Source: Micromonospora parva (GTDB taxonomy: Bacteria > Actinomycetota > Actinomycetes > Mycobacteriales > Micromonosporaceae). Taken from it: 64,000 nt of DNA. Both the position numbers and the translations under genes were made by a program. The notes beneath the pieces were generated by a model, which saw nothing but the letters and a program-made list of their open reading frames with translations, did not search any database and was not told the origin of the DNA. Shown in pieces: positions 24,589 through 62,952 of this stretch (positions within the stretch are counted from its first letter, which is position 1; each line of letters starts with the position of its first letter). The stretch is from the NCBI RefSeq assembly GCF_000718515.1, contig NZ_JNZS01000013.1, forward strand, positions 130,101-194,100, written 5' to 3'.

Positions 24589-24662
24589 GCCGCCTTAGCT
24601 CAGTCGGCTAGAGCGACGCACTCGTAATGCGTAGGTCGACGGTTCGATTCCGTCAGGCGGCT
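24589..24662 (+). tRNA. tRNA-Thr (anticodon CGT)
   Basis: A 74-nt cloverleaf. The acceptor GCCGCCT (24589-24595) pairs with AGGCGGC (24655-24661), and the discriminator is T at 24662. The anticodon stem ACGCA/TGCGT encloses the loop CTCGTAA, with CGT at 24623-24625 reading ACG (Thr). The T-arm contains GGTTCGATTCC. CCA is not encoded. Its 3' part is overlapped on the opposite strand by a decayed integrase gene, marking it as an integration target. Confidence 0.97.
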
Positions 24663-24912
24663 CGGTACGGAAGCCCAGGTCATCGGCCTGGGCTTCTGCC
24701 GTTTCTAAGGTCGACCACTCAACCTGCTCACCGGACCACAGCGCCCCTCCCTCCAGCCGGGCATCAGCTTCCCGATCAACCTCGGGGCCACCGAGAGTGA
24801 CGTTGATCTGAGAGTGATCGAGGATCTCTGTGACGACGCGGACGCAGTCGGGGCCATGAACGACGGGTCGGAGGCACCCGGCCTGGCGGCGATGCCTTAC
24901 GGCTGTCACCAC
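24595..24912 (-). pseudogene. Tyrosine recombinase (integrase) C-terminal remnant
   Basis: The reading frame keeps the integrase motif VTEILDHSQINVTL (usual form ...LGHSQI.VT...Y.H) and a following DREADARLEGG helix like the end of actinobacterial phage integrases. The segment that should hold the nucleophilic Tyr is missing, and everything before the HSQ motif is lost. The last codons (GIEPSTYALRVRRSSRLS) are simply the antisense of tRNA-Thr, as happens when an integrase gene abuts its attachment site. It is a fossil of an element integrated at this tRNA. Confidence 0.75.
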
Positions 24913-26170: not shown

Positions 26171-26314
26171 TTACCGCAGCATGTCCGCGTCGCCCGTCTC
26201 CTGATCGACAGCCACACGCAACGGCCATCCAAAACTCACGACATGGCAACGCCGCACGCCGGTCACAGTCGCCACCTGCTCGACCCGGCCATCCACGGAC
26301 TGCCGCATGGTCAT
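26171..26314 (-). CDS. Possible small coupled ORF, 47 aa
   Basis: An open frame of 47 codons beginning ATG ACC ATG, whose first ATG overlaps the TGA of the glycosyltransferase-methyltransferase gene (ATGA), and ending TAA at 26171. Third positions are strongly G/C (GTC GAG CAG GTG GCG ACT GTG ACC GGC), like the real genes here. The product MTMRQSVDGRVEQVATVTG... has no recognised domain. No Shine-Dalgarno site is needed if it is translated by coupling. The second cassette has no counterpart. Confidence 0.35.
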   Translation of the reverse strand: MTMRQSVDGRVEQVATVTGVRRCHVVSFGWPLRVAVDQETGDADMLR

Positions 26315-27576
26315 ATGTTCAGCAGGCCGCCGTTGCGCTGGGCGTCATCCTTGATAGCGATGAGATTCGCGGAGACGTACGGGATGTTGTGTGTCTTGTG
26401 CCATTCGCTCGGGAAGTACGTGACCAACCGGGACGCCTGAAATCGGCATGTGATTTCAGGTACGAACCGAGAATATTTGACATCCGTGAAGTACCAGAAG
26501 GAGTTTTCGTTGTAGAAGGCCACATGCGTTGGATCCTGGTAGGCACCTCGACCGTCGGTGCTAGGGGTCAGCGACAACAGCATCCCGTTCGGTGCGAGCA
26601 ATCGGTACAACTCGTTGAACAGCGCGACCTTGTCCGGGATGTGTTCCAGGAAGTCCACCGCCCGAATGACCCCGACGCTGTTGTCCGGCAGGTCGACACC
26701 CTTCGTTATGTCGCAGACGATGTCGACACCCGAAGCGGCGTGGTAATCCAGACCGAGATACCCTTCCGGCTTGTTGTGGGCGGCGCCCAGGTCGAGTGCC
26801 AGGAGTCCCTGCCGCCGCGACCAGGCCAGCACATTGTGTTGAATGTTCCGGTCGTAGATCTCCACGGTGCGCTGCTGGATGCGGGCGTTGACATCCGGAA
26901 TGCGCTGCGTGTTCTTGGCGTGCATGCGCTGGAGGTACAGGCATTTCTGAATGTGATGGAACTCGCTCACCTGGTACATCCGAGCCATGAGGTCGGCGTC
27001 GTCCGCGACGTCGAGCGACTCGTCGTACCCGCCGACCTTCTCGTAGATGTCCCGGCGGAACGCCCGTACGTGGTTGGGCGCGTACCAGATGTAGCTCACG
27101 TTGTGCGGGGTCGGCGGCATCGCCCGGCAGACCAGCACCTCGCGGCCGTCCACCTTCTCGTCGTAGTGCCGCCAGCCGAACGAACTCGCGAAACGGTCCT
27201 CGGAGCGGCCGCCGTCCTCCTGGATCTGCGCGGTGTCGCTGTAGACGAACCCCACCTCCGGGTTCGCGTCGAAGGCATCGACGATCTCTTGCAGACAGTC
27301 GCTACTGAGCAGATCGTCGTCGTCCAGCTCGACCAGGATGTCGCCGGCAGCCTCGGCGCAGGCGTACCCCTTCACAGCGCCGACGCCGTTCAGGTTGTCC
27401 TGGACGATGAGCCGAATGCGATCGTCATGCCTCTCGGGCCGCCAACGCGACCCCTGATTGAGGATGACCACCCATTCCCAGTCGGTGAAAGTCTGGGCGA
27501 CGAGCGATTCGAAACACTCGTCGATGAAGCGAGTGCGGTTGCTCCCCGTGAAGACCGTTACGCGAGGTGTGCGCAT
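26311..27576 (-). CDS. Glycosyltransferase 2-methyltransferase fusion (cassette 1)
   Basis: A 421-residue cytosolic protein. Residues 1 to about 230 are a GT-A/GT2 domain: VTVFTGSNRTRFIDECFESL at the nucleotide-binding start, DILVELDDDDLLSSD as the metal-binding DxD-type motif, and VGGYDESLDVADDADLM as the acceptor-side ED-like motif. From about 250 it is a class I methyltransferase: LLALDLGAAHNKPEGYLGLD (SAM site), VDIVCDITKGVDLPDNSVG and VIRAVDFLEHIPDKVALFNEL, ending with DPTHVAFYNENSFWYFTD. It follows the TPR lipoprotein and collagen-like genes on the same strand. The ATG at 27576 is preferred since it aligns with the paralog at 61687-62952; GTG 27588 overlaps the upstream stop. By eye about three quarters of residues are identical to the paralog. 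Confidence 0.85.
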   Translation of the reverse strand: MRTPRVTVFTGSNRTRFIDECFESLVAQTFTDWEWVVILNQGSRWRPERHDDRIRLIVQDNLNGVGAVKGYACAEAAGDILVELDDDDLLSSDCLQEIVDAFDANPEVGFVYSDTAQIQEDGGRSEDRFASSFGWRHYDEKVDGREVLVCRAMPPTPHNVSYIWYAPNHVRAFRRDIYEKVGGYDESLDVADDADLMARMYQVSEFHHIQKCLYLQRMHAKNTQRIPDVNARIQQRTVEIYDRNIQHNVLAWSRRQGLLALDLGAAHNKPEGYLGLDYHAASGVDIVCDITKGVDLPDNSVGVIRAVDFLEHIPDKVALFNELYRLLAPNGMLLSLTPSTDGRGAYQDPTHVAFYNENSFWYFTDVKYSRFVPEITCRFQASRLVTYFPSEWHKTHNIPYVSANLIAIKDDAQRNGGLLNI

Positions 27577-27584
27577 GGAGCCAA

Positions 27585-28202
27585 TCACCTACCTGCCGGC
27601 GTCGAGGACCGCGTGGTAGGGGGCGTGCGGTACTTCGCAGGCACGGCTGAGCTGAGCCCCTTGTCCAGGCGGATCGCCGTCTTGAAGGCGTCCCGCGCCG
27701 CCGCGTCCTCACCGGACTGGGACAGCAGCATGCCCAGTCGTAGGTAGGCGGTCGACGACTTGTTGTCGATCGACACGATCTTGCGGTAGATGTCCATCGC
27801 CGTCGTCGGTGCCTTACCTTCCAGGGCGATGGCCTTGTTGTAGAGGGCCGGCTTGTAGTTGGCGTCGGCCGCCAGTGCCTTGTCGTAGTTGCTGATCGCC
27901 TCGTCGGCCTGATTGCGCGACTGGGCGATGTAGCCCAGGTTGAACCAGGCAAACTTGTTGTCGGCCTCGGCGTCCAGCAGCTTCTCGAAGGTGGCCTTCG
28001 CCGCGTCGAAGTCGCCGGCCTGGCCCTGCTCGAGACCGAGCTTCAGCAGATCAGCCGGCGTTTCGGTGCCACCGTTCGTCTTGTCGGTGTTGCCGGCGTT
28101 GTTCGTCTGTGGCTTCTCGGCAGGCTTGTCGCTGCATGCCGTGACACCGGTCAGCAGGACCGCACCGCAGGCGAGCGACCCGAGTATCTGACGCATGTTC
28201 AT
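27585..28202 (-). CDS. TPR lipoprotein (cassette 1)
   Basis: A 205-residue exported protein. The signal peptide [19 protein letters not shown] is followed by the lipobox VTAC, giving lipid anchoring at Cys23. A disordered Lys/Asn/Thr-rich linker (about 25-50) leads to at least four TPR-like helical repeats: [78 protein letters not shown] and [27 protein letters not shown]. The TPRs probably bind a partner protein in the envelope. The ATG at 28202 overlaps the collagen-like stop (ATGA) and uses GAGGAGGAG inside the last Glu codons as ribosome site. It is paralogous to 61092-61682. Confidence 0.88.
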
Positions 28203-30118
28203 TTCTCCTCCTCGACGACAACGGGGCGGTTCGGCCTGCTGTTCGTCCGGTTGGCCTCGCTACTGTTGGACGTCGCGCGGTCCGACGTCTCGGACGGAGC
28301 CCCCAACATCAGCGGTGTGGCGAGTGAAATGCAGGAGACCCAGATGTCGGCGCCCCCGCCGGTAAAGGTGAACTGGTAGCCGCTGGTCGTGAGTGGCTGG
28401 ATGAGCACGGGGTTCACTCCTGCACCCGATAGCTGATATCCGGTTCCGACAGCGATATCTCCCGGCTCACAGCCGAAATCGACGGGGGTGTCTGCGATCA
28501 CGGTCAGCGGACCCTGGATGTAGGCGGCCTGGATTCCGTTGCCCGCCACGCCCTGCGCGCCTTGGGCGCCCTGCGCGCCCTGCGCACCTTGGGCGCCTTG
28601 GAAACCTTGAGCGCCGGTGGCGCCTTGGGCGCCTGTGTCACCTTGTGGGCCTTGGGCACCGGTGGCGCCTTGGAAGCCCTGGACCCCTTGGGCCCCTGCG
28701 TCGCCCTGTGGGCCTTGGGGGCCGGTGGCGCCTTGGGCGCCTGTGTCACCTTGTGGGCCGCCTTGTGCGCCTTGTGCGCCTGCATCGCCCTGTGGGCCTT
28801 GGGGGCCGGTGGCGCCTTGGGCGCCTGCATCGCCTTGCGCGCCTTGAGCGCCGGTGGCGCCTTGAGCGCCTGCATCGCCCTGTGGGCCTTGAGCGCCGGT
28901 GGCGCCTTGAGCGCCTGCATCGCCTTGCGCGCCTTGGAAGCCTTGTGCGCCTGCGGCTCCCTGTGGGCCTTGGGGGCCGGTGGCGCCTTGGGCGCCTGCA
29001 TCGCCCTGTGGGCCTTGAGCGCCGGTGGCGCCTTGAGCGCCTGCATCGCCTTGCGCGCCTTGAGCGCCTGCATCGCCTTGCGCGCCTTGGAAGCCTTGTG
29101 CGCCTGCAGCTCCCTGTGGGCCTTGGGGGCCGGTGGCCCCCTGTGCGCCTGCATCGCCTTGGGCGCCTTGGGCACCTGCGTCGCCTTGTGGGCCTTGGGG
29201 ACCGGTGGCGCCTTGAGCGCCCGCGTCACCTTGAGCGCCGGTGGCGCCCTGTGAACCCTGAGCGCCGGTGGCGCCCTGAGCCCCTGCATCGCCTTGGGGG
29301 CCGGTGGCGCCTTGTGCGCCTGCGTCGCCTTGTGCGCCTTGGAAGCCTTGGGCGCCGGTGGCACCTTGGGCGCCCGCATCACCCTGAGCGCCTTGAACGC
29401 CTGCGTCGCCTTGGGCACCGGTGGCGCCTTGGAAACCCTGAGTACCTTGGGCGCCCGAGTCGCCCTGTGCGCCCTGTGCGCCTGCGTCACCCTGCGGGCC
29501 TTGAGCCCCGGTGGCGCCTTGAGCGCCTGCGTCACCCTGAGCGCCTTGAGCGCCCGGCACGCCGGTGGCGCCCTGAGCGCCTTGGAAGCCTTGAGCGCCT
29601 TGGGCGCCTGTGTTGCCCTGGGCGCCTTGGGCGCCTGTGTTGCCTTGAGCGCCCTGGCTGCCCGCTTCGCCTTGGAATCCCTGTGCGCCTTGAGCGCCTG
29701 CGTCGCCCTGGGCACCCTGAGCACCGTGAGCGCCCGCGTCGCCTTGAGCGCCCTGAGGGCCTTGGGGGCCTTGCTTGCCGTGCGGGTAGTCGTCCTTGTC
29801 CTTGTCGTGACCGCCCCAGGGGCTCTGCCAGCCCTGCGGACCGTAGTCCGGTTGCCCGTCGGGGTACTGGTCCCACGAATCGTCGGGCCCGTCGCTGTCT
29901 TGGCGGACCGTTGACCAGGATGAGGGCCACGCGCCGAGTTGGCCATGCGGGCCGGGCGTACCGATGTGTACGTCCTGTGCGGACGGCTTCGCTTCCACCG
30001 GTTGCGCTGCGGCTGCGGGCCCACCCGTCATTCCGACTACCAGTAGGGCGGAACTCAGCCCTGAAGCCGCCCGGGCATGGTTCAGCCGCCGCCGCCGCAG
30101 CCGTCGGTTGTTGCTCAT
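28199..30118 (-). CDS. Secreted collagen-like Gly-X-Y protein (cassette 1)
   Basis: A 639-residue protein. The Arg-rich N-terminus and hydrophobic segment (residues 17-38, ending AAAAQ) form an export signal. A Gly/Pro/Asp/His linker (40-113) follows. Residues 114-526 are about 137 Gly-X-Y triplets, mostly [12 protein letters not shown] and GFQ, with almost no Pro or Lys in Y. The register is broken once by an extra Gly at residues 453-454. The C-terminal domain (527-639) has two Cys ([15 protein letters not shown] and IWVSCISLA) and ends in an Asn/Ser/Arg tail plus EEEK. A collagen-like triple helix is expected, assembled outside the cell. GGAGGGG precedes the ATG. It is the first gene of a three-gene unit. 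Confidence 0.93.
28540..29795. repeat. Internal repeat array of collagen-like gene 1
   Basis: A long in-gene array of 9-bp-periodic DNA corresponding to Gly-X-Y codons, with larger near-identical blocks (GCCTTGAGCGCCTGCATCGC and relatives) recurring many times. Such arrays expand and contract by slippage or recombination, so copy number may vary between strains. It is not a CRISPR array because there are no unique spacers. Confidence 0.85.
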
Positions 30119-57240: not shown

Positions 57241-57993
57241 ATGCAGCCAACCGTCACGGCCGATCTGTCGGTGCGGCCCGCCGATGTCGAACGTCCCCTG
57301 CTCAGCTACCGCGACGAGGCGACCGGCGAGCGGGTCGACCTGACCGCACAGCAGGTCGGCTCGTGGGCGGCGCGCAGCGCCAGCCTGCTGCGGGACGGCT
57401 GTGGACTTGGCCCCGGCAGCCGCGTAGCGGTCCTGCTGCCGCCGCACTGGCGTACCGCCGCGGTGTTGTTGGGCGCGTGGGCCTCGGGCCTGGCGGTGTC
57501 GTTCCGGCCGCGCGCCACGGCGGGCCTGCCGGTGCTCGAACCGGGCGGTGACCGGCCGTTCGACGCGGTCTTCGTGACCCCGCAGCGGCAGGACGACTGG
57601 CTGGAGGACGTGCCGGACGCCCCGCACCGCTACCTCGTCGGCACCGAGGCGGGTCGGCTGATCGACGTGCCGTTGGGCTGGCTGGACTGGTCCGCCGAGG
57701 TGCTCCGCCACTCGGACGTCACACCCGACCACACCGCCATCCGCCCGTCCGACCCGGCCAGCGCGGACGGCACCACCTACGGCCAGTGGGGGGCGCTCGC
57801 CCGGGAGGTCGCCGCGATGATGGACCTGCGGGCCGGCGACCGGCTGCTGGTCGACGCGGCCGAGACCGAGCAGCCGCTGAAGTGGTTGCTCGCGCCGCTG
57901 TCGGCCGGCGCGTCCGTGGTGATCAGCGCCAATCTCGACCCGGCGCGGCGGGACGCGGTCGTCGCCGCCGAGCAGGTGACCCGGGTCCTCTGA
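57241..57993 (+). CDS. TIGR03089-like protein (truncated AMP-ligase fold)
   Basis: A 250-residue protein with the pattern of TIGR03089, an actinobacterial family resembling the N-terminal half of AMP-forming ligases (LSYRDEATGERVDLTAQQVGSWAARSASLLRDGCGLGPGSRVAVLLPPHW). The ATP-binding P-loop is absent, so enzymatic activity is doubtful. The ATG at 57241 is preceded by GGGGAG. The reading frame is open 14 codons upstream, with GTG 57235 as an alternative. Confidence 0.7.
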   Translation: MQPTVTADLSVRPADVERPLLSYRDEATGERVDLTAQQVGSWAARSASLLRDGCGLGPGSRVAVLLPPHWRTAAVLLGAWASGLAVSFRPRATAGLPVLEPGGDRPFDAVFVTPQRQDDWLEDVPDAPHRYLVGTEAGRLIDVPLGWLDWSAEVLRHSDVTPDHTAIRPSDPASADGTTYGQWGALAREVAAMMDLRAGDRLLVDAAETEQPLKWLLAPLSAGASVVISANLDPARRDAVVAAEQVTRVL

Positions 57994-58151
57994 ACCCCGC
58001 CGGAGCGCCCCAAACAGCGCTGACCGGTCCGGTTCCGTTACATCGTCATCTGCCCTGCTCAGAGGGGCTTTTGTCGATGCCGTCGGCGTGTTCTCATACC
58101 GAACAGCGACGCCATCGACCCGGCACCGCCTCCCTCACGAAAGGTGCACCG

Positions 58152-59114
58152 ATGCGCAGAAGATCGACCTTCCGACTCGCGGTCCTCACCGCCACCGCCG
58201 CGACGGTCCTGGCTTCCGGCGGCGCCTCCGGGGCGCTCGCCACGGCCGCGCCCGCGACCGCCTCCCCGGGCGTCGCCGCCTGCGAGCCGGGTGCCGACGC
58301 GCACGGCGCGGCCCGGGTCGCCAAGGGCGCCACCGTCCAGGAGCCGGCGCTGTACGCCAAGAACGAGGCCAACGCCTACGGCGTGATCAAGGACGCGCCG
58401 CGCCTGCCCAACGGCAGCGTGACCATCCCGACGGTCTTCCACATGATCTCCGACCATCCGCTCACCGCAACCGAGACGACCAGGTGGAACACCCTGATCG
58501 CCGCGCAGATGACGGTCCTCAACGACTCGTTCGCGGGCCGCACGGCCGGCGACGCCGCCAACACCCCGTTCCGGTTCTCGCTCGTCGACACCACGTGGAC
58601 GGTGAACAGCGCCTGGTACACGGTGGTGCCCGGCAAGAACGAGCGGGACATGAAGAAGGCGCTGTACACCGGCGACTCCGAGACCCTGAACGTGTACGCG
58701 GCCAACATCGGCGGCGGGCTGCTCGGCTGGGCGTACTTCCCGAAGGGCTACAACAACGGGCGCGACTACATCGACGGCGTGGTGATGCTCGACGAGTCGA
58801 TGCCGGGTGGCACGGCCGGCAAGTACGCCCTGGGTGACACGCTGACGCACGAGGTCGGGCACTGGCTGATGCTGGAGCACACCTTCGCGCACGGCTGCTC
58901 CGCGTCCGGCGACTTCGTCGCGGACACCCCACGCGAGGCGGCGCCGCAGTTCGACTGCCCGGTGGGTGCGGACTCCTGCACCGCCCCCGGGCTTGACCCG
59001 ATCCACAACTTCATGGACTACACCGAGGACTCCTGCATGAACATGTTCACGCCGGGTCAGGCCGACCGGATGAGCGACGCCTGGGTGGCGTTCCGGGCCG
59101 GCGGCGCCGGATAG
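58152..59114 (+). CDS. Secreted zinc metalloprotease (M43/pappalysin-like)
   Basis: A 320-residue exported protease. The signal peptide has an Arg-rich start (MRRRSTFRLAVLTATAATVLASGG) and cleaves near ATAAPATASP. The catalytic zinc motif HEVGHWLMLEH is complete, the Met-turn is FMDY, and conserved Cys pairs (CSASGDF, FDCPVGADSC, EDSC) fit disulfides of the family. It probably degrades extracellular protein. The ATG at 58152 has a weak purine run upstream. It is followed by 163 bp before the antisense pseudogene at 59278. Confidence 0.9.
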   Translation: MRRRSTFRLAVLTATAATVLASGGASGALATAAPATASPGVAACEPGADAHGAARVAKGATVQEPALYAKNEANAYGVIKDAPRLPNGSVTIPTVFHMISDHPLTATETTRWNTLIAAQMTVLNDSFAGRTAGDAANTPFRFSLVDTTWTVNSAWYTVVPGKNERDMKKALYTGDSETLNVYAANIGGGLLGWAYFPKGYNNGRDYIDGVVMLDESMPGGTAGKYALGDTLTHEVGHWLMLEHTFAHGCSASGDFVADTPREAAPQFDCPVGADSCTAPGLDPIHNFMDYTEDSCMNMFTPGQADRMSDAWVAFRAGGAG

Positions 59115-59732: not shown

Positions 59733-61049
59733 ATGAGGGAAAACACGGAACGTAAGCCGCTGGTGAGTCCCCGGCACATCAAGGCCGCATCGGGTTTGAG
59801 CTCCGTGCTGATCGTGGCCGGCATGACCACAGGCGTCACCCCCGCTCAGGCGGCCGAGGTGGTCCACAAGGCCCGCGCCGAGCGCAGCTACCAGGGCACG
59901 CCCAGGCCGCTCGGACAGGCGCAGGCGCGGCAGCCCGGCGCAACCCTCGTGCGGGACGGCGGTCCCGACGGATGGTCCGGTCCGCAGGGTTGGCAGTGGC
60001 AGGACCAGGAGCCGGGTCGACGCCACCATGACGGCGGCAAGGTGGGTCCGCAGGGGCCGCAAGGTCCGCAGGGCGAACGCGGGGGACGTGGTCCACGAGG
60101 CCCACGTGGCTTCCAGGGTGCTACCGGCGCGCAGGGTTTCCAAGGTGAGCAGGGTGAGCGGGGTGAGCGGGGTGAGCGGGGTCCGCAGGGTTCGCCGGGT
60201 CCCCAAGGGCCGCAGGGTTTCCAGGGCCCCCAGGGTCCGCAGGGTGTGACCGGTTCGCCGGGTCCGCAGGGCTCGCAAGGTTCCCAGGGTGCGCAGGGCG
60301 AGGCCGGTCCGCAGGGCGAGGCCGGGCCGCAGGGTTCGCAGGGTGAGGCTGGCCCGCAGGGCGCGCAGGGCCCGCAGGGTTTCCAGGGCGAGGCCGGGCC
60401 GCAGGGTGCGCAGGGCGACGCCGGCCCGCAGGGCGCGCAGGGCGAGGTTGGCCCGCAGGGCGCGCAGGGTGCGCAGGGTGCGCAGGGCGAGGTTGGCCCG
60501 CAGGGCGCGCAGGGTGCGCAGGGTGCGCAGGGTTTCCAGGGTTCGCAGGGCGACGCCGGGCCGCAGGGTTCGCAGGGCGAGGCTGGTCCGCAGGGTTCGC
60601 AGGGCGAGGCTGGCCCGCAGGGTGCGCAGGGTTTCCAGGGCCCGCAGGGCGAGGTCGGGCCGCAGGGTGCGCAGGGTTCGCAGGGCGAGGTCGGTGCGCA
60701 GGGTGCGCAGGGTTTCCAGGGCGAGGTCGGTCCGCAAGGTGCGCAGGGCCCGCAGGGTTTCCAGGGTGCGCAGGGCGAGACCGGGCCGCAGGGCGCTCAG
60801 GGCGCTCAGGGCGCTCAGGGTGTCCTGGCAGGCGTTCATGTCGAATCTTCTGATGTGCCTGGGACCGGCTTTCAAACCGTCAGCTGCCCCACCGGTGAAG
60901 TGGCGACGGGCGGCGGCTACACCACCAACGGGACCGTGAACGTGGACAGCCCGCTCGTAGTAGGAGGTACGCCGGTCGGATGGCAGGCCAACTTCCTCGG
61001 AACGGAACCCGGCCTCGTCTATGTCATCTGCGCGCCCGCCACATCGTGA
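59733..61049 (+). CDS. Secreted collagen-like Gly-X-Y protein (cassette 2)
   Basis: A 438-residue protein. The hydrophobic export segment is at residues 19-40 ([23 protein letters not shown]), very like cassette 1 ([17 protein letters not shown]). A polar linker with Trp/Gln/His follows (to about 104). Residues 105-362 are about 86 Gly-X-Y triplets, [18 protein letters not shown], with a charged GER start block. The C-terminal 75 residues form a two-Cys domain ([15 protein letters not shown] and YVICAPATS). GGAGGGG precedes the ATG. It leads the second collagen/TPR/GT-MT unit and is in opposite orientation to the first. Confidence 0.93.
60040..60830. repeat. Internal repeat array of collagen-like gene 2
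   Basis: A 9-bp-periodic in-gene array of Gly-X-Y codons with recurring larger blocks such as CCGCAGGGCGCGCAGGGCGA. It is shorter than the array in gene 1 and has a more acidic composition. The repeats are in phase with codons throughout. Confidence 0.85.
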
Positions 61050-61091: not shown

Positions 61092-61682
61092 GTGAGAATG
61101 CGACAGGTGTTCGGCACACTTGCCTGCGGCTCTGTGCTGCTGGGCGGGGCGGGTGCGTGCAGTGACGACAAGACACCCGTGGCGAAGGAATCCGGCGGGA
61201 CCGTCGCACCAGGGGCCGGGCAGGAGGACCCGGGGGTCCTGCTCCAGCAGGGTATCGAGCAGGGTCAGGCCGGCAAGTCCGACGAGGCGAAGGCAACCTT
61301 CGAGAAGGTGGTCGCGCTTCAGGGAGACAACAAGTTCGCCTGGTTCAACCTCGGCTACCTCGCCCAGTCGCGTAACGCGACCGGCGAAGCGATGGCGGAC
61401 TACGACAAGGCACTGCAGATCGACGACTCCTACCGGCCGGCCCTTTACAACAAGGCAATGCTGTTGGAGGAGGCGAAGCCGGACGAGGCGGTCGCGCTGT
61501 ATCGCAAGATCGTCGGTGCCGATGAGGGCGCTTCCACGGCGTACCTGCGATTGGGGTTGATGCTCGTCAAGCAGCACGACCGGACGGGCGCCCAGGAGGC
61601 GTTCGCGTCGGCGATCGGTGCGGATCCGAAGCTTGCGTCGGCCGTCCCCGAGGACTTCCGCCCGCAGAAGACAAGGAGGTGA
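61092..61682 (+). CDS. TPR lipoprotein (cassette 2)
   Basis: A 196-residue exported lipoprotein paralogous to 27585-28202. The signal peptide MRMRQVFGTLACGSVLLGG precedes the lipobox AGAC, and a Gly/Ala/Glu linker follows. The TPR-like repeats are [79 protein letters not shown] and TAYLRLGLMLVKQHDRTGAQEAFASAI. It starts GTG at 61092 (or ATG 61098), 42 bp after the collagen stop. GAGGAAG serves as ribosome site. Confidence 0.88.
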   Translation: MRMRQVFGTLACGSVLLGGAGACSDDKTPVAKESGGTVAPGAGQEDPGVLLQQGIEQGQAGKSDEAKATFEKVVALQGDNKFAWFNLGYLAQSRNATGEAMADYDKALQIDDSYRPALYNKAMLLEEAKPDEAVALYRKIVGADEGASTAYLRLGLMLVKQHDRTGAQEAFASAIGADPKLASAVPEDFRPQKTRR

Positions 61683-61686
61683 TCGT

Positions 61687-62952
61687 GTGGTGAAGGCACC
61701 ACACGTCACGGTTTTCACAGGTAGCAACCGAACCCGCTTCCTGGACGATTGTCTGCAGTCCCTGCTGGCGCAGACGTACGCGGACTGGGAGTGGGTGGTC
61801 ATTCTCAACCAGGGCACCCGGTGGCGCCCCGAGGCGAACGATCCACGGATCCGCCTCCTGGTGCGGGACGGGCTGTCCGGTGTCGGTGCGGTGAAGCGAC
61901 AGGCCTGCGCCGAGGCGTACGGGGACATCCTCGTCGAACTCGACGACGACGACCTGCTCAGCAGCGACTGCCTGGGGGAGATCGTGGCCGCCTTCGACGC
62001 GAACCCCGGGGCGGGCTTCGTCTACAGCGACACGGCTCAGATCAGCGAGGACGGCGGCCGGGACGACTCGCGGTTCGCCGCCGCGCACGGGTGGCGCTAC
62101 CGCGACGAGCGGGTCGACGGGCGTGCGGTGTTGGCCTGCCACTCGCTGGAGCCGACGCCGCACAACGTCAGCTACATCTGGTACGCCCCGAACCACGTCC
62201 GGGCGTTCCGACGGGATCTGTACGAGAAGGTGGGCGGCTACAACGAGGAACTCGACGTGGCAGATGACCTCGACCTGATGTGCCGGCTGTACCAGGCGGC
62301 CGAGTTTCACCAGATCCCCAAGTGCCTTTACCTGCAACGGATGCACGCCAGGAACACCCAGCGCGACCCTGAGGTCAACGCGCGCATCCAGCGGCGGTCC
62401 GTGGAGATTCACGACCGTAACATCCAGTTCAACGCGTTGGCCTGGGCGAAACGGCGGGACCTGCTGGCCCTGGACATGGGAGCGGCACACAACAAGCCGG
62501 AGGGGTTCCTCGGGCTGGATCGCCGTGCCGGGGACGGCGTGGACATCGTCTGCGACGTCACGAAGGGGATCGACCTGCCGGACAGCAGCGTCGGGGTGAT
62601 CCGGGCGGTCGACTTCCTGGAGCACATCCCGGACAAGATCGGGATGTTCAACGAGTTGTACCGGGTCCTCGCCCCGAACGGGTTGCTGCTGTCCCTGACG
62701 CCCAGTTCGGACGGACGGGGCGCGTACCAGGATCCGACGCACGTCGCGTTCTACAACGAGAACTCGTTCTGGTATTTCACCAACGACCAGTACGCACGTT
62801 TCGTGCCGGAGATCCGCTGCCGATTCCAGGTGTCTCGCCTGGGCACGTACTTCCCGAGCGATTTCCACCAGGCGCACAACATCCCGTACGTCGTCGCGAA
62901 CCTGATCGCGGTGAAGGACGAGACCCGCAACGGAGGTCCGTTGACGATCTGA
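61687..62952 (+). CDS. Glycosyltransferase 2-methyltransferase fusion (cassette 2)
   Basis: A 421-residue paralog of 26311-27576 with the same order of domains: VTVFTGSNRTRFLDDCLQSL and GDILVELDDDDLLSSDCLG for the GT2 half, VGGYNEELDVADDLDLM for the acceptor loop, then LLALDMGAAHNKPEGFLGLD, DIVCDVTKGIDLPDSSVG and VDFLEHIPDK for the SAM half. GTG 61687 is preferred since GGAGG at 61675-61679 lies 7 nt upstream; the adjacent GTG at 61690 aligns exactly with the other copy. It is the last gene of the cassette. Confidence 0.88.
   Translation: MVKAPHVTVFTGSNRTRFLDDCLQSLLAQTYADWEWVVILNQGTRWRPEANDPRIRLLVRDGLSGVGAVKRQACAEAYGDILVELDDDDLLSSDCLGEIVAAFDANPGAGFVYSDTAQISEDGGRDDSRFAAAHGWRYRDERVDGRAVLACHSLEPTPHNVSYIWYAPNHVRAFRRDLYEKVGGYNEELDVADDLDLMCRLYQAAEFHQIPKCLYLQRMHARNTQRDPEVNARIQRRSVEIHDRNIQFNALAWAKRRDLLALDMGAAHNKPEGFLGLDRRAGDGVDIVCDVTKGIDLPDSSVGVIRAVDFLEHIPDKIGMFNELYRVLAPNGLLLSLTPSSDGRGAYQDPTHVAFYNENSFWYFTNDQYARFVPEIRCRFQVSRLGTYFPSDFHQAHNIPYVVANLIAVKDETRNGGPLTI

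What the first reader, a model, noticed from the sequence alone, without database searches (positions are those of the whole stretch)
26311..30118. Duplicated three-gene cassette: collagen-like protein, TPR lipoprotein, glycosyltransferase-methyltransferase
Seen: the gene trio 28199-30118, 27585-28202, 26311-27576 recurs as 59733-61049, 61092-61682, 61687-62952 in the same order but opposite orientation, about 30 kb apart. Each trio has a secreted Gly-X-Y protein, a TPR lipoprotein and a GT2-SAM methyltransferase fusion. Cassette 1 genes overlap by 4 bases (ATGA). Inference: the cytosolic fusion enzyme modifies the collagen-like protein or a sugar on it, and the lipoprotein helps anchor or present it at the envelope. 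I do not recall a described actinobacterial system of this composition, so it is a candidate new glycosylated-collagen surface system.
Basis: partly seen in the sequence, partly recalled or inferred. Interest (0 to 1): 0.92.

Follow-up and report, generated by a model that had tools for sequence, protein, structure and literature searches.

The report
Glutamine-rich collagen with dedicated sugar enzyme
Some actinobacteria carry a small gene module in which an unusual glutamine-rich, collagen-like secreted protein is nearly always paired with one enzyme that looks able to attach and methylate a sugar, so it is probably a home-grown, sugar-decorated bacterial collagen of which we found no description in the open papers searched.

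Summary
In detail: two cassettes (collagen-like protein, TPR lipoprotein, GT2-methyltransferase fusion "GM"), 29.6 kb apart in opposite orientation. They are not a recent duplication: GM1 and GM2 are 77% identical to each other but 97% and 96% identical to different Micromonospora species.

The module is real. In 61 Micromonospora genomes GM, the TPR protein and a Gln-rich collagen helix occur in exactly the same 11. In 150 Streptomyces genomes GM occurs in 12, each with a Gln-rich collagen within 5.2 kb. Among 80 GM loci, 75 have a collagen-like ORF within 4.3 kb, in several gene orders. Gln is the commonest Y-position residue in 71 of these 75, whichever rule picks the ORF; in collagens unlinked to GM it rarely is. 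The TPR gene is optional. In 11 Streptomyces loci the collagen gene lies between dTDP-rhamnose genes.

Most likely GM decorates the collagen with a (methyl)deoxyhexose before secretion; this is inferred, without glycan data. It works like SgtA-BclA3, but Thr acceptors are often absent. Boldest reading: the Y glutamines are the acceptors. Verdict: new variant of a known kind.

The parts
28199..30118 (-). CO1: collagen-like protein, 639 aa; signal-peptide-like N-terminus, 138 Gly-X-Y triplets, C-terminal beta domain, no LPXTG
   Evidence: Pfam Collagen 4.8e-62; Y position Q 89, A 23, T 21 of 138; no LPXTG; signal peptide judged by eye
28535..29779 (-). CO1 triple-helix region (residues 114-528, one interruption)
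   Evidence: 114 + 24 triplets
28322..28561 (-). CO1 C-terminal domain with two conserved Cys
   Evidence: one search hit, E 5.2e-14; alignment
27585..28202 (-). TP1: TPR lipoprotein, 205 aa, lipobox VTAC (by eye)
   Evidence: TPR_8 3.7e-15; sequence
26311..27588 (-). GM1: GT2 glycosyltransferase-SAM methyltransferase fusion, 425 aa
   Evidence: PF00535 5.8e-13, PF08241 1.4e-6; AlphaFold2 pLDDT 85, pTM 0.85
26905..27567 (-). GM1 GT-A domain; Asp 89, 91 and 92 invariant in 27 aligned sequences, Asp 196, 197 and 199 at least 90%
26356..26811 (-). GM1 methyltransferase domain, with conserved QDPTHVxxYNENSFWY stretch
59733..61049 (+). CO2: collagen-like protein, 438 aa, 88 triplets, no LPXTG
   Evidence: Pfam Collagen 3.6e-43; Y position Q 61 of 88
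60036..60827 (+). CO2 triple-helix region; query
60801..61040 (+). CO2 C-terminal domain, predicted all-beta, resistin/PCSK9-like
61092..61682 (+). TP2: TPR lipoprotein, 196 aa, lipobox GAC (by eye)
   Evidence: TPR_8 1.4e-12; sequence
61687..62952 (+). GM2: GT2-methyltransferase fusion, 421 aa, 77% identical to GM1

Best explanation
Each cassette makes a secreted, trimeric, Gln-rich collagen-like protein together with its own modifying enzyme. Proposed course: (1) the collagen chain is made in the cytosol; (2) the soluble GM enzyme transfers a sugar, most likely from dTDP-L-rhamnose or a related dTDP-deoxyhexose, to the collagen or to a first sugar on it, and its methyltransferase half O-methylates that sugar; (3) the chain is secreted, its C-terminal domain trimerises and the triple helix folds; (4) where present, the membrane-anchored, outward-facing TPR protein helps fold, hold or space the collagen at the envelope. 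Shown here: the module, its conservation across gene orders, conserved GT active-site aspartates, Gln bias at Y, and rml linkage in Streptomyces. Inferred: donor, acceptor, methylation target, topology, trimerisation, TPR role.
For: Co-segregation in Micromonospora: GM 11 of 61, TPR the same 11, Gln-rich helix (E<=1e-10, weakest 7.5e-11) the same 11. Streptomyces: GM 12 of 150; a C-terminal-domain match at E<=1e-10 in the same 12 only, 11 of them within 5.2 kb of GM; the twelfth (G589) has another Gln-collagen 2.2 kb from GM. GM is rare (6 of 396 in a phylum draw, own genome included); of the 5 others 4 have a collagen-like gene nearby and the fifth contig ends at the TPR gene. 75 of 80 GM loci have a collagen-like ORF within 4.3 kb, median 705 bp, in tandem or convergent arrangements, which argues for function and not mere frozen order. 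rml genes near GM in 23 of 80 loci; in 11 the collagen lies between rml genes. The GT domain resembles K4CP and SpsA, the latter solved with dTDP. Nine loci carry a second GT2 protein, whose one tested representative matches GmaR (3.6e-11) and SunS (1.5e-5). The own genome has an RmlC-family gene. Precedent: sgtA immediately upstream of bclA3, O-GlcNAc on collagen Thr (PMC7157674, abstract and passages).
Against: No glycan, mass or activity data. rml linkage is nearly confined to Streptomyces (22 of 23 loci), so it may be one ancestral event; I saw no rml gene beside either window cassette. Ser/Thr are lacking in the helix of 6 of 75 and at Y of 13 of 75 linked collagens. The methyltransferase half has only weak matches to known structures (best E 0.0028). 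A cytosolic enzyme and a secreted substrate require modification before export. One locus with ample flanks (L096, Frankia) has GM and no collagen.
Confidence: 0.55

Rival explanations
1. GM builds a separate surface glycan (polysaccharide or lipid-linked), with which the collagen associates non-covalently, like a matrix of protein and sugar.
For: The GT half is closest to the chondroitin polymerase K4CP, and rml genes also serve wall polysaccharides (recalled). Several linked collagens have no Ser/Thr in the helix.
Against: None of the nine recurrent neighbour clusters that I scanned with Pfam (of 15 clusters listed, which include GM and TPR; four others not scanned) is a flippase, polymerase or ligase family. 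GM has no membrane segment. The link is to one type of collagen, which a free glycan does not require.
Confidence: 0.22
2. The three genes are only co-inherited: the collagen family and GM travel together on one mobile cassette without acting on each other.
For: Patchy distribution (11 of 61, 12 of 150) and two unlike cassettes in one genome point to horizontal transfer. Distal Gln-collagens in GM+ genomes may be paralogues of the cassette gene.
Against: The pairing survives several gene orders, absence of TPR and presence of rml genes, over several classes of Actinomycetota.
Confidence: 0.13
3. The transferase acts on the TPR protein or on the collagen's N- or C-terminal region, not on the helix.
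For: Tails after the helix hold many Ser/Thr even when the helix has none.
Against: No TPR gene was found near GM in 23 of 80 loci, 16 of them with at least 1 kb upstream. It gives no reason for Gln at Y.
Confidence: 0.1

Closest known systems
SgtA-BclA3 of Clostridioides difficile (PMC7157674; abstract and passages seen)
   Same: Collagen-like surface protein with a glycosyltransferase gene immediately beside it; a collagen-modifying enzyme shown in vitro.
   Different: SgtA adds GlcNAc to Thr (also Ser) of GPT repeats; here Y is mostly Gln and the donor is probably a dTDP-sugar. I know of no methyltransferase half in SgtA (recalled; the passages mention two domains without naming the second in what I saw). 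SgtA was not aligned with GM here.
BclA of Bacillus exosporium (PMC6222408, abstract and passages)
   Same: Collagen-like protein carrying a tetrasaccharide of three rhamnoses and a 2-O-methylated sugar; rhamnose genes near bclA (recalled, no call).
   Different: Thr acceptor, exosporium location; no GT-methyltransferase fusion known to me (recalled).
LPXTG collagen-like adhesins Scl1/Scl2
   Same: Gly-X-Y region matches NCBIfam models below cut-off.
   Different: No LPXTG; the genus has separate LPXTG collagens with Pro at Y.
Mimivirus collagen with a bifunctional hydroxylase-glycosyltransferase (named in review PMC8968730, passages and reference list)
   Same: Two-activity enzyme acting on collagen.
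   Different: Lysyl hydroxylase instead of methyltransferase; unrelated architecture (recalled).
Resistin and the PCSK9 C-terminal domain (fold only)
   Different: No PDB sequence match at E<=0.001; no shared function claimed.

Membership tests
Glycosylated bacterial collagen of the BclA/SgtA type | Long Gly-X-Y region | tested here: met
Glycosylated bacterial collagen of the BclA/SgtA type | Glycosyltransferase gene beside the collagen gene | tested here: met
   75 of 80 GM loci within 4.3 kb
Glycosylated bacterial collagen of the BclA/SgtA type | Thr (or Ser) at Y as O-glycan acceptor | tested here: not met
   Commonest Y is Gln in 71 of 75, Thr in 2; no Ser/Thr at Y in 13 of 75. CO1 does have 21 Thr at Y, CO2 only 3
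Glycosylated bacterial collagen of the BclA/SgtA type | Glycan on the collagen | not testable with these tools
   Needs mass spectrometry
Glycosylated bacterial collagen of the BclA/SgtA type | Location on the spore surface | not testable with these tools
   No localisation data
Glycosylated bacterial collagen of the BclA/SgtA type | Transferase homologous to SgtA | not tested
   SgtA sequence was not compared
LPXTG collagen-like adhesin (Scl1/Scl2) | NCBIfam score over cut-off | tested here: not met
   CO1: 263.1 of 325 (Scl2) and 206.7 of 400 bits (Scl1)
LPXTG collagen-like adhesin (Scl1/Scl2) | LPXTG wall anchor | tested here: not met
   No LPXTG pattern in CO1 or CO2
GT2 glycosyltransferase | Pfam match over cut-off and conserved acidic residues | tested here: met
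   49.6 vs 23.3 bits; Asp 89/91/92 invariant in 27 rows, Asp 196/197/199 at least 90%
Class I SAM methyltransferase (Methyltransf_11) | Pfam match over cut-off | tested here: met
   29.3 vs 21.2 bits
XrtA/PEP-CTERM TPR lipoprotein PrsT | TIGR02917 over cut-off | tested here: not met
   48.2 of 312.2 bits
Resistin/PCSK9 C-terminal fold | Shared fold and trimeric or pseudo-trimeric assembly | tested here: inconclusive

The most novel reading that the evidence does not exclude
The Y-position glutamines are the acceptor: GM is a collagen glutamine glycosyltransferase (or glutamine methyl/glycosyl-transferase) that coats the triple helix through Gln side-chain amides, a bacterial counterpart of animal hydroxylysine glycosylation. 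Grounds: Gln at Y tracks GM, while Thr at Y does not. In the two genera tested, collagens read from GM-lacking genomes mostly have Pro, Thr, Ala or Lys at Y (one exception at 40% Gln, L210), and Gln is present at 26% or more of Y in all 75 linked helices. Against: in two deeper-branching GM genomes Thr is commonest at Y and Gln is 26% and 19% (L160, L161), and Gln favours Y in collagens elsewhere (PMC3368898, passages). Gln-linked hexose has been reported but is described as rare (mycoplasma lipoproteins, PMC4657876, abstract and passages).
Probability: 0.13. Interest if true: 0.9.

Novelty: new variant of a known kind. Interest (0 to 1): 0.62.

Why it matters
It would extend dedicated collagen modification from Firmicutes spore coats and giant viruses to soil actinobacteria, in a compact two-to-three-gene module that can be tested in one co-expression experiment. 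The Gln-at-Y signature gives a sharp prediction about the acceptor residue, and the natural presence/absence pattern in two genera gives ready-made controls. A bacterial collagen decorated by its own enzyme, without hydroxyproline, is also of interest for biomaterials.

Tried and rejected
Recent duplication of one cassette: rejected by the GM tree. TPR as an obligatory part: rejected, adjacent in 53 and near in 4 of 80 (found with a profile of the two window TPR proteins, so distant ones may be missed). My first locus scan looked for collagen on the + strand only and missed the convergent Streptomyces genes; corrected. PF01391 as presence/absence marker: rejected, it matches 55 of 61 genomes, including low-complexity stretches and both strands of one place. 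The Gln-helix query in Streptomyces at E<=1e-5 matches 79 of 150 genomes, so there it does not mark GM by itself; reading the helices was needed. O-glycosylation of helix Thr as a universal rule: rejected. A DUF6445 (2OG-oxygenase-like) partner: only 4 of 85 loci, not general. Paper searches for an actinobacterial description or an explanation of Gln at Y gave none that I recognised from the listings; open PubMed Central papers only, and capped listings, so absence is weak evidence.

Caveats on counts. In one search the collagen ORF was chosen by C-terminal motif, then Gln share, then length; choosing by length alone gives the same 75 loci and the same 71 of 75, and among the 45 with the motif Gln is commonest in 43. 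27 of the 75 ORFs are cut at their 5' side by the end of the sequence. The 22 unlinked controls are 19 of the 26 Micromonospora loci read plus 3 Streptomyces loci; the 7 dropped (L032, L045, L051, L052, L056, L057, L058) were judged by eye to be poor or low-complexity, and none has Gln commonest in its longest ORF. In one search several of the 22 GM- matches are low-complexity or hold stop codons and are not credible collagens. In one search I examined 40 matches that I chose from a listing that was itself cut; of the 5 GM+ rows with Gln commonest, L251 (stop codons), L255 (a tie) and L236 (27%) are weak.
Full report
WHAT IS THERE. The window lies in a 7.1 Mb genome of, by inference, Micromonospora (contigs of genus relatives have the lengths of named Micromonospora records). 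Cassette 1 is on the minus strand (CO1 28199-30118, TP1 27585-28202, GM1 26311-27588) and cassette 2 on the plus strand (CO2 59733-61049, TP2 61092-61682, GM2 61687-62952). Junctions are tight: ATGA overlap CO1/TP1; GTGA overlap or an 8-base gap TP1/GM1; 42 and 4 bases in cassette 2. GM has a GT2 half and a Methyltransf_11 half. CO1 and CO2 have 138 and 88 Gly-X-Y triplets with Gln at Y in 89 and 61. TP1 and TP2 start with lipobox signal peptides (by eye, sequence).

NOT A RECENT DUPLICATION. GM1 and GM2 are 77% identical. GM1 is 97% identical to M. foliorum and falls in a 12-row Micromonosporaceae clade (support 100/100); GM2 is 96% identical to M. tulbaghiae, a different clade (100/100). Flanks of cassette 1 match flanks of L060, L061, L062, L066 and L068, and the left flank of cassette 2 matches that of L072. 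The genome therefore holds two separately inherited versions.

CO-OCCURRENCE WITHIN THE GENUS. In 61 genomes (own plus 60 drawn) GM is in 11, the TPR protein in exactly the same 11 and adjacent in all 12 cassettes, and the Gln-rich helix in exactly the same 11 (E<=1e-10, weakest 7.5e-11). The C-terminal domain (CTD) at E<=1e-10 is also confined to those 11; weaker matches occur in 10 more genomes, and the one I read (L151) is a protein with three tandem copies of the domain and no collagen. There are C(61,11), about 4e11, ways to choose 11 of 61; relatedness makes this only a rough guide.

SECOND GENUS. The genus of G083 is Streptomyces by inference (contig G529:C1 has the length of NZ_CP089312.1). 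GM is in 12 of 150. A CTD match at E<=1e-10 occurs in the same 12 and no other (next genome 5.2e-10); 11 of the 12 lie within 5.2 kb of GM. In G589 that match is an ordinary collagen on another contig, but a Gln-rich collagen (9 of 18 Y) lies 2.2 kb from its GM. In all 12 the collagen near GM has Gln as commonest Y residue, 42-77%.

PHYLUM. GM is in 6 of 396 genomes, own included. Of the five others, four have a collagen-like gene in the 10-17 kb fetched; the fifth contig ends inside the TPR gene. Y residues of the four: Gln 42% (L158), Gln 52% (L162), Thr commonest with Gln 26% (L160), Thr commonest with Gln 19% (L161). L161 and L162 carry GM proteins only 50-51% identical to GM1.

EIGHTY NAMED LOCI. 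A scan of genome contigs gave 80 loci (best 80 of 160) from Micromonospora, Plantactinospora, Streptomyces, Kitasatospora, Frankia, Saccharothrix, Acidimicrobiia, Solirubrobacterales and other actinobacterial MAGs. In 75 a collagen-like ORF lies within 4.3 kb of GM (median 705 bp). The other five: L103 and L113 have GM within about 0.5 kb of the end of the sequence; L080 has a transposase-like ORF (by eye), then the end; L099 has a protein with the same C-terminal domain but few triplets, beside rml genes; L096 (Frankia) is a true miss. Arrangements differ: collagen-TPR-GM in tandem; collagen-GM without TPR (Frankia); TPR-GM or GM alone facing a convergent collagen (Streptomyces). TPR is adjacent in 53 and near in 4 of 80. 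A pairing that survives rearrangement points to function.

GLUTAMINE AT Y. In the 75 linked collagens Y is Gln in 65% on average and is the commonest Y residue in 71, unchanged when the ORF is picked by length alone; at least 40% in 70. X is more varied (entropy 3.1 against 2.0 bits). In 22 unlinked collagens Gln is never the commonest Y: 19 Micromonospora loci, 15 of them with an LPXTG end, from GM+ and GM- genomes alike, and 3 Streptomyces loci; 7 further loci were dropped beforehand (see Tried and rejected). In Streptomyces, of the 30 helix matches read, all 8 from GM+ genomes have Gln commonest, against 1 of 22 from GM- genomes (L210, 40%; two of the 22 had no run, and several are low-complexity). 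In 40 further matches chosen by me, Gln is commonest in 0 of 20 from GM- genomes and 5 of 20 distal ones from GM+ genomes, three of them weak. Four distal GM+ collagens are clearly Gln-type (L205, L217, L237, L238; 52-80%); other distal collagens of GM+ genomes are ordinary. They may be paralogues of the cassette gene. For comparison, a published table gives Gram-positive bacterial collagens Thr 48.3% and Gln 18.4% at Y (PMC3368898, passages). Ser/Thr are wholly absent from the helix in 6 of 75 and from Y in 13 of 75.

SUGAR CONTEXT. Pfam supports dTDP-sugar enzymes among the recurrent neighbours, one representative each: nucleotidyltransferase (RmlA), GDP_Man_Dehyd (RmlB), dTDP_sugar_isom (RmlC) and RmlD_sub_bind (RmlD). 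At least one is within 8 kb in 23 of 80 loci, 22 of them Streptomyces; in 11 the collagen gene lies between rml genes. Some Streptomyces loci lack rml at the same place, so rml is not simply fixed background. I saw no rml gene beside either window cassette, but the genome encodes an RmlC-family protein elsewhere. Nine loci carry a second GT2 protein; its one tested representative (L126) matches GmaR (3.6e-11) and SunS (1.5e-5), both protein or peptide glycosyltransferases, and designed repeat proteins through its repeat part. Four of 85 loci carry a DUF6445 protein.

MECHANISM. Best explanation: GM acts on the collagen in the cytosol, adding a deoxyhexose, probably rhamnose, and methylating it; the collagen is then secreted and trimerises through its C-terminal domain; the membrane-anchored TPR protein, where present, assists or retains it. 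Direct precedent for a neighbouring collagen-modifying transferase is SgtA-BclA3 (PMC7157674, abstract and passages). Bacillus BclA carries three rhamnoses and a 2-O-methylated terminal sugar (PMC6222408, abstract and passages). This system works like those, but the tested acceptor feature (Thr at Y) is not met, so it is not filed as a member.

BOLDEST READING. Gln at Y is the acceptor. Gln-linked hexose has been reported in mycoplasma lipoproteins and is described there as rare elsewhere (PMC4657876, abstract and passages). The correlation found here does not prove it: Gln at Y may serve helix stability and be inherited along with the cassette, and the deep-branching L160 and L161 are Thr-rich.

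VERDICT. A real, conserved actinobacterial module, not described in the papers I could search; function inferred; new variant of a known kind; the Gln-acceptor question is cheap to test.

Noticed in passing
window 24589-24663: tRNA-Thr (CGT) about 1.6 kb from cassette 1, with lower G+C from 24 to 28 kb (63-67%); possible insertion site of a small island.
   Followed up: no
L079, L086, L110: In Frankiaceae/Frankiales MAGs a second, diverged GM gene (41-51% to GM1) lies 0.9-1.6 kb from the first in opposite orientation.
   Followed up: partly
L078:8265-8753, L100:4532-5011, L101:4089-4568, L136:19034-19513: DUF6445 protein near GM, about 75% identical to the L078 copy in three other loci; weak 2OG-oxygenase match in one; a possible collagen hydroxylase.
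   Followed up: partly
L151 and similar places listed: Micromonospora protein with three tandem copies of the collagen C-terminal domain and no collagen, reminiscent of the three modules of PCSK9; one read.
   Followed up: partly
L030-L048 loci: The genus also has LPXTG-anchored collagens with Pro at Y (GSPGAP, GPTGPP, GDPGDP), in GM+ and GM- genomes.
   Followed up: partly
L099, L128, L131 and others: In Streptomyces loci the module often sits between an SCO4983-family gene (13 loci) and a PEPCK gene (10 loci), with or without rml genes inserted: a repeated insertion site.
   Followed up: no
window 57786-59114: M43 (pappalysin-type) metalloprotease ORF just upstream of cassette 2.
   Followed up: no
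L060, L061, L063-L065, L067, L068 and others: 27 of 75 linked collagen ORFs run off the 5' end of the sequence: assemblies break in the collagen gene, so the module is probably under-counted in draft genomes.
   Followed up: no
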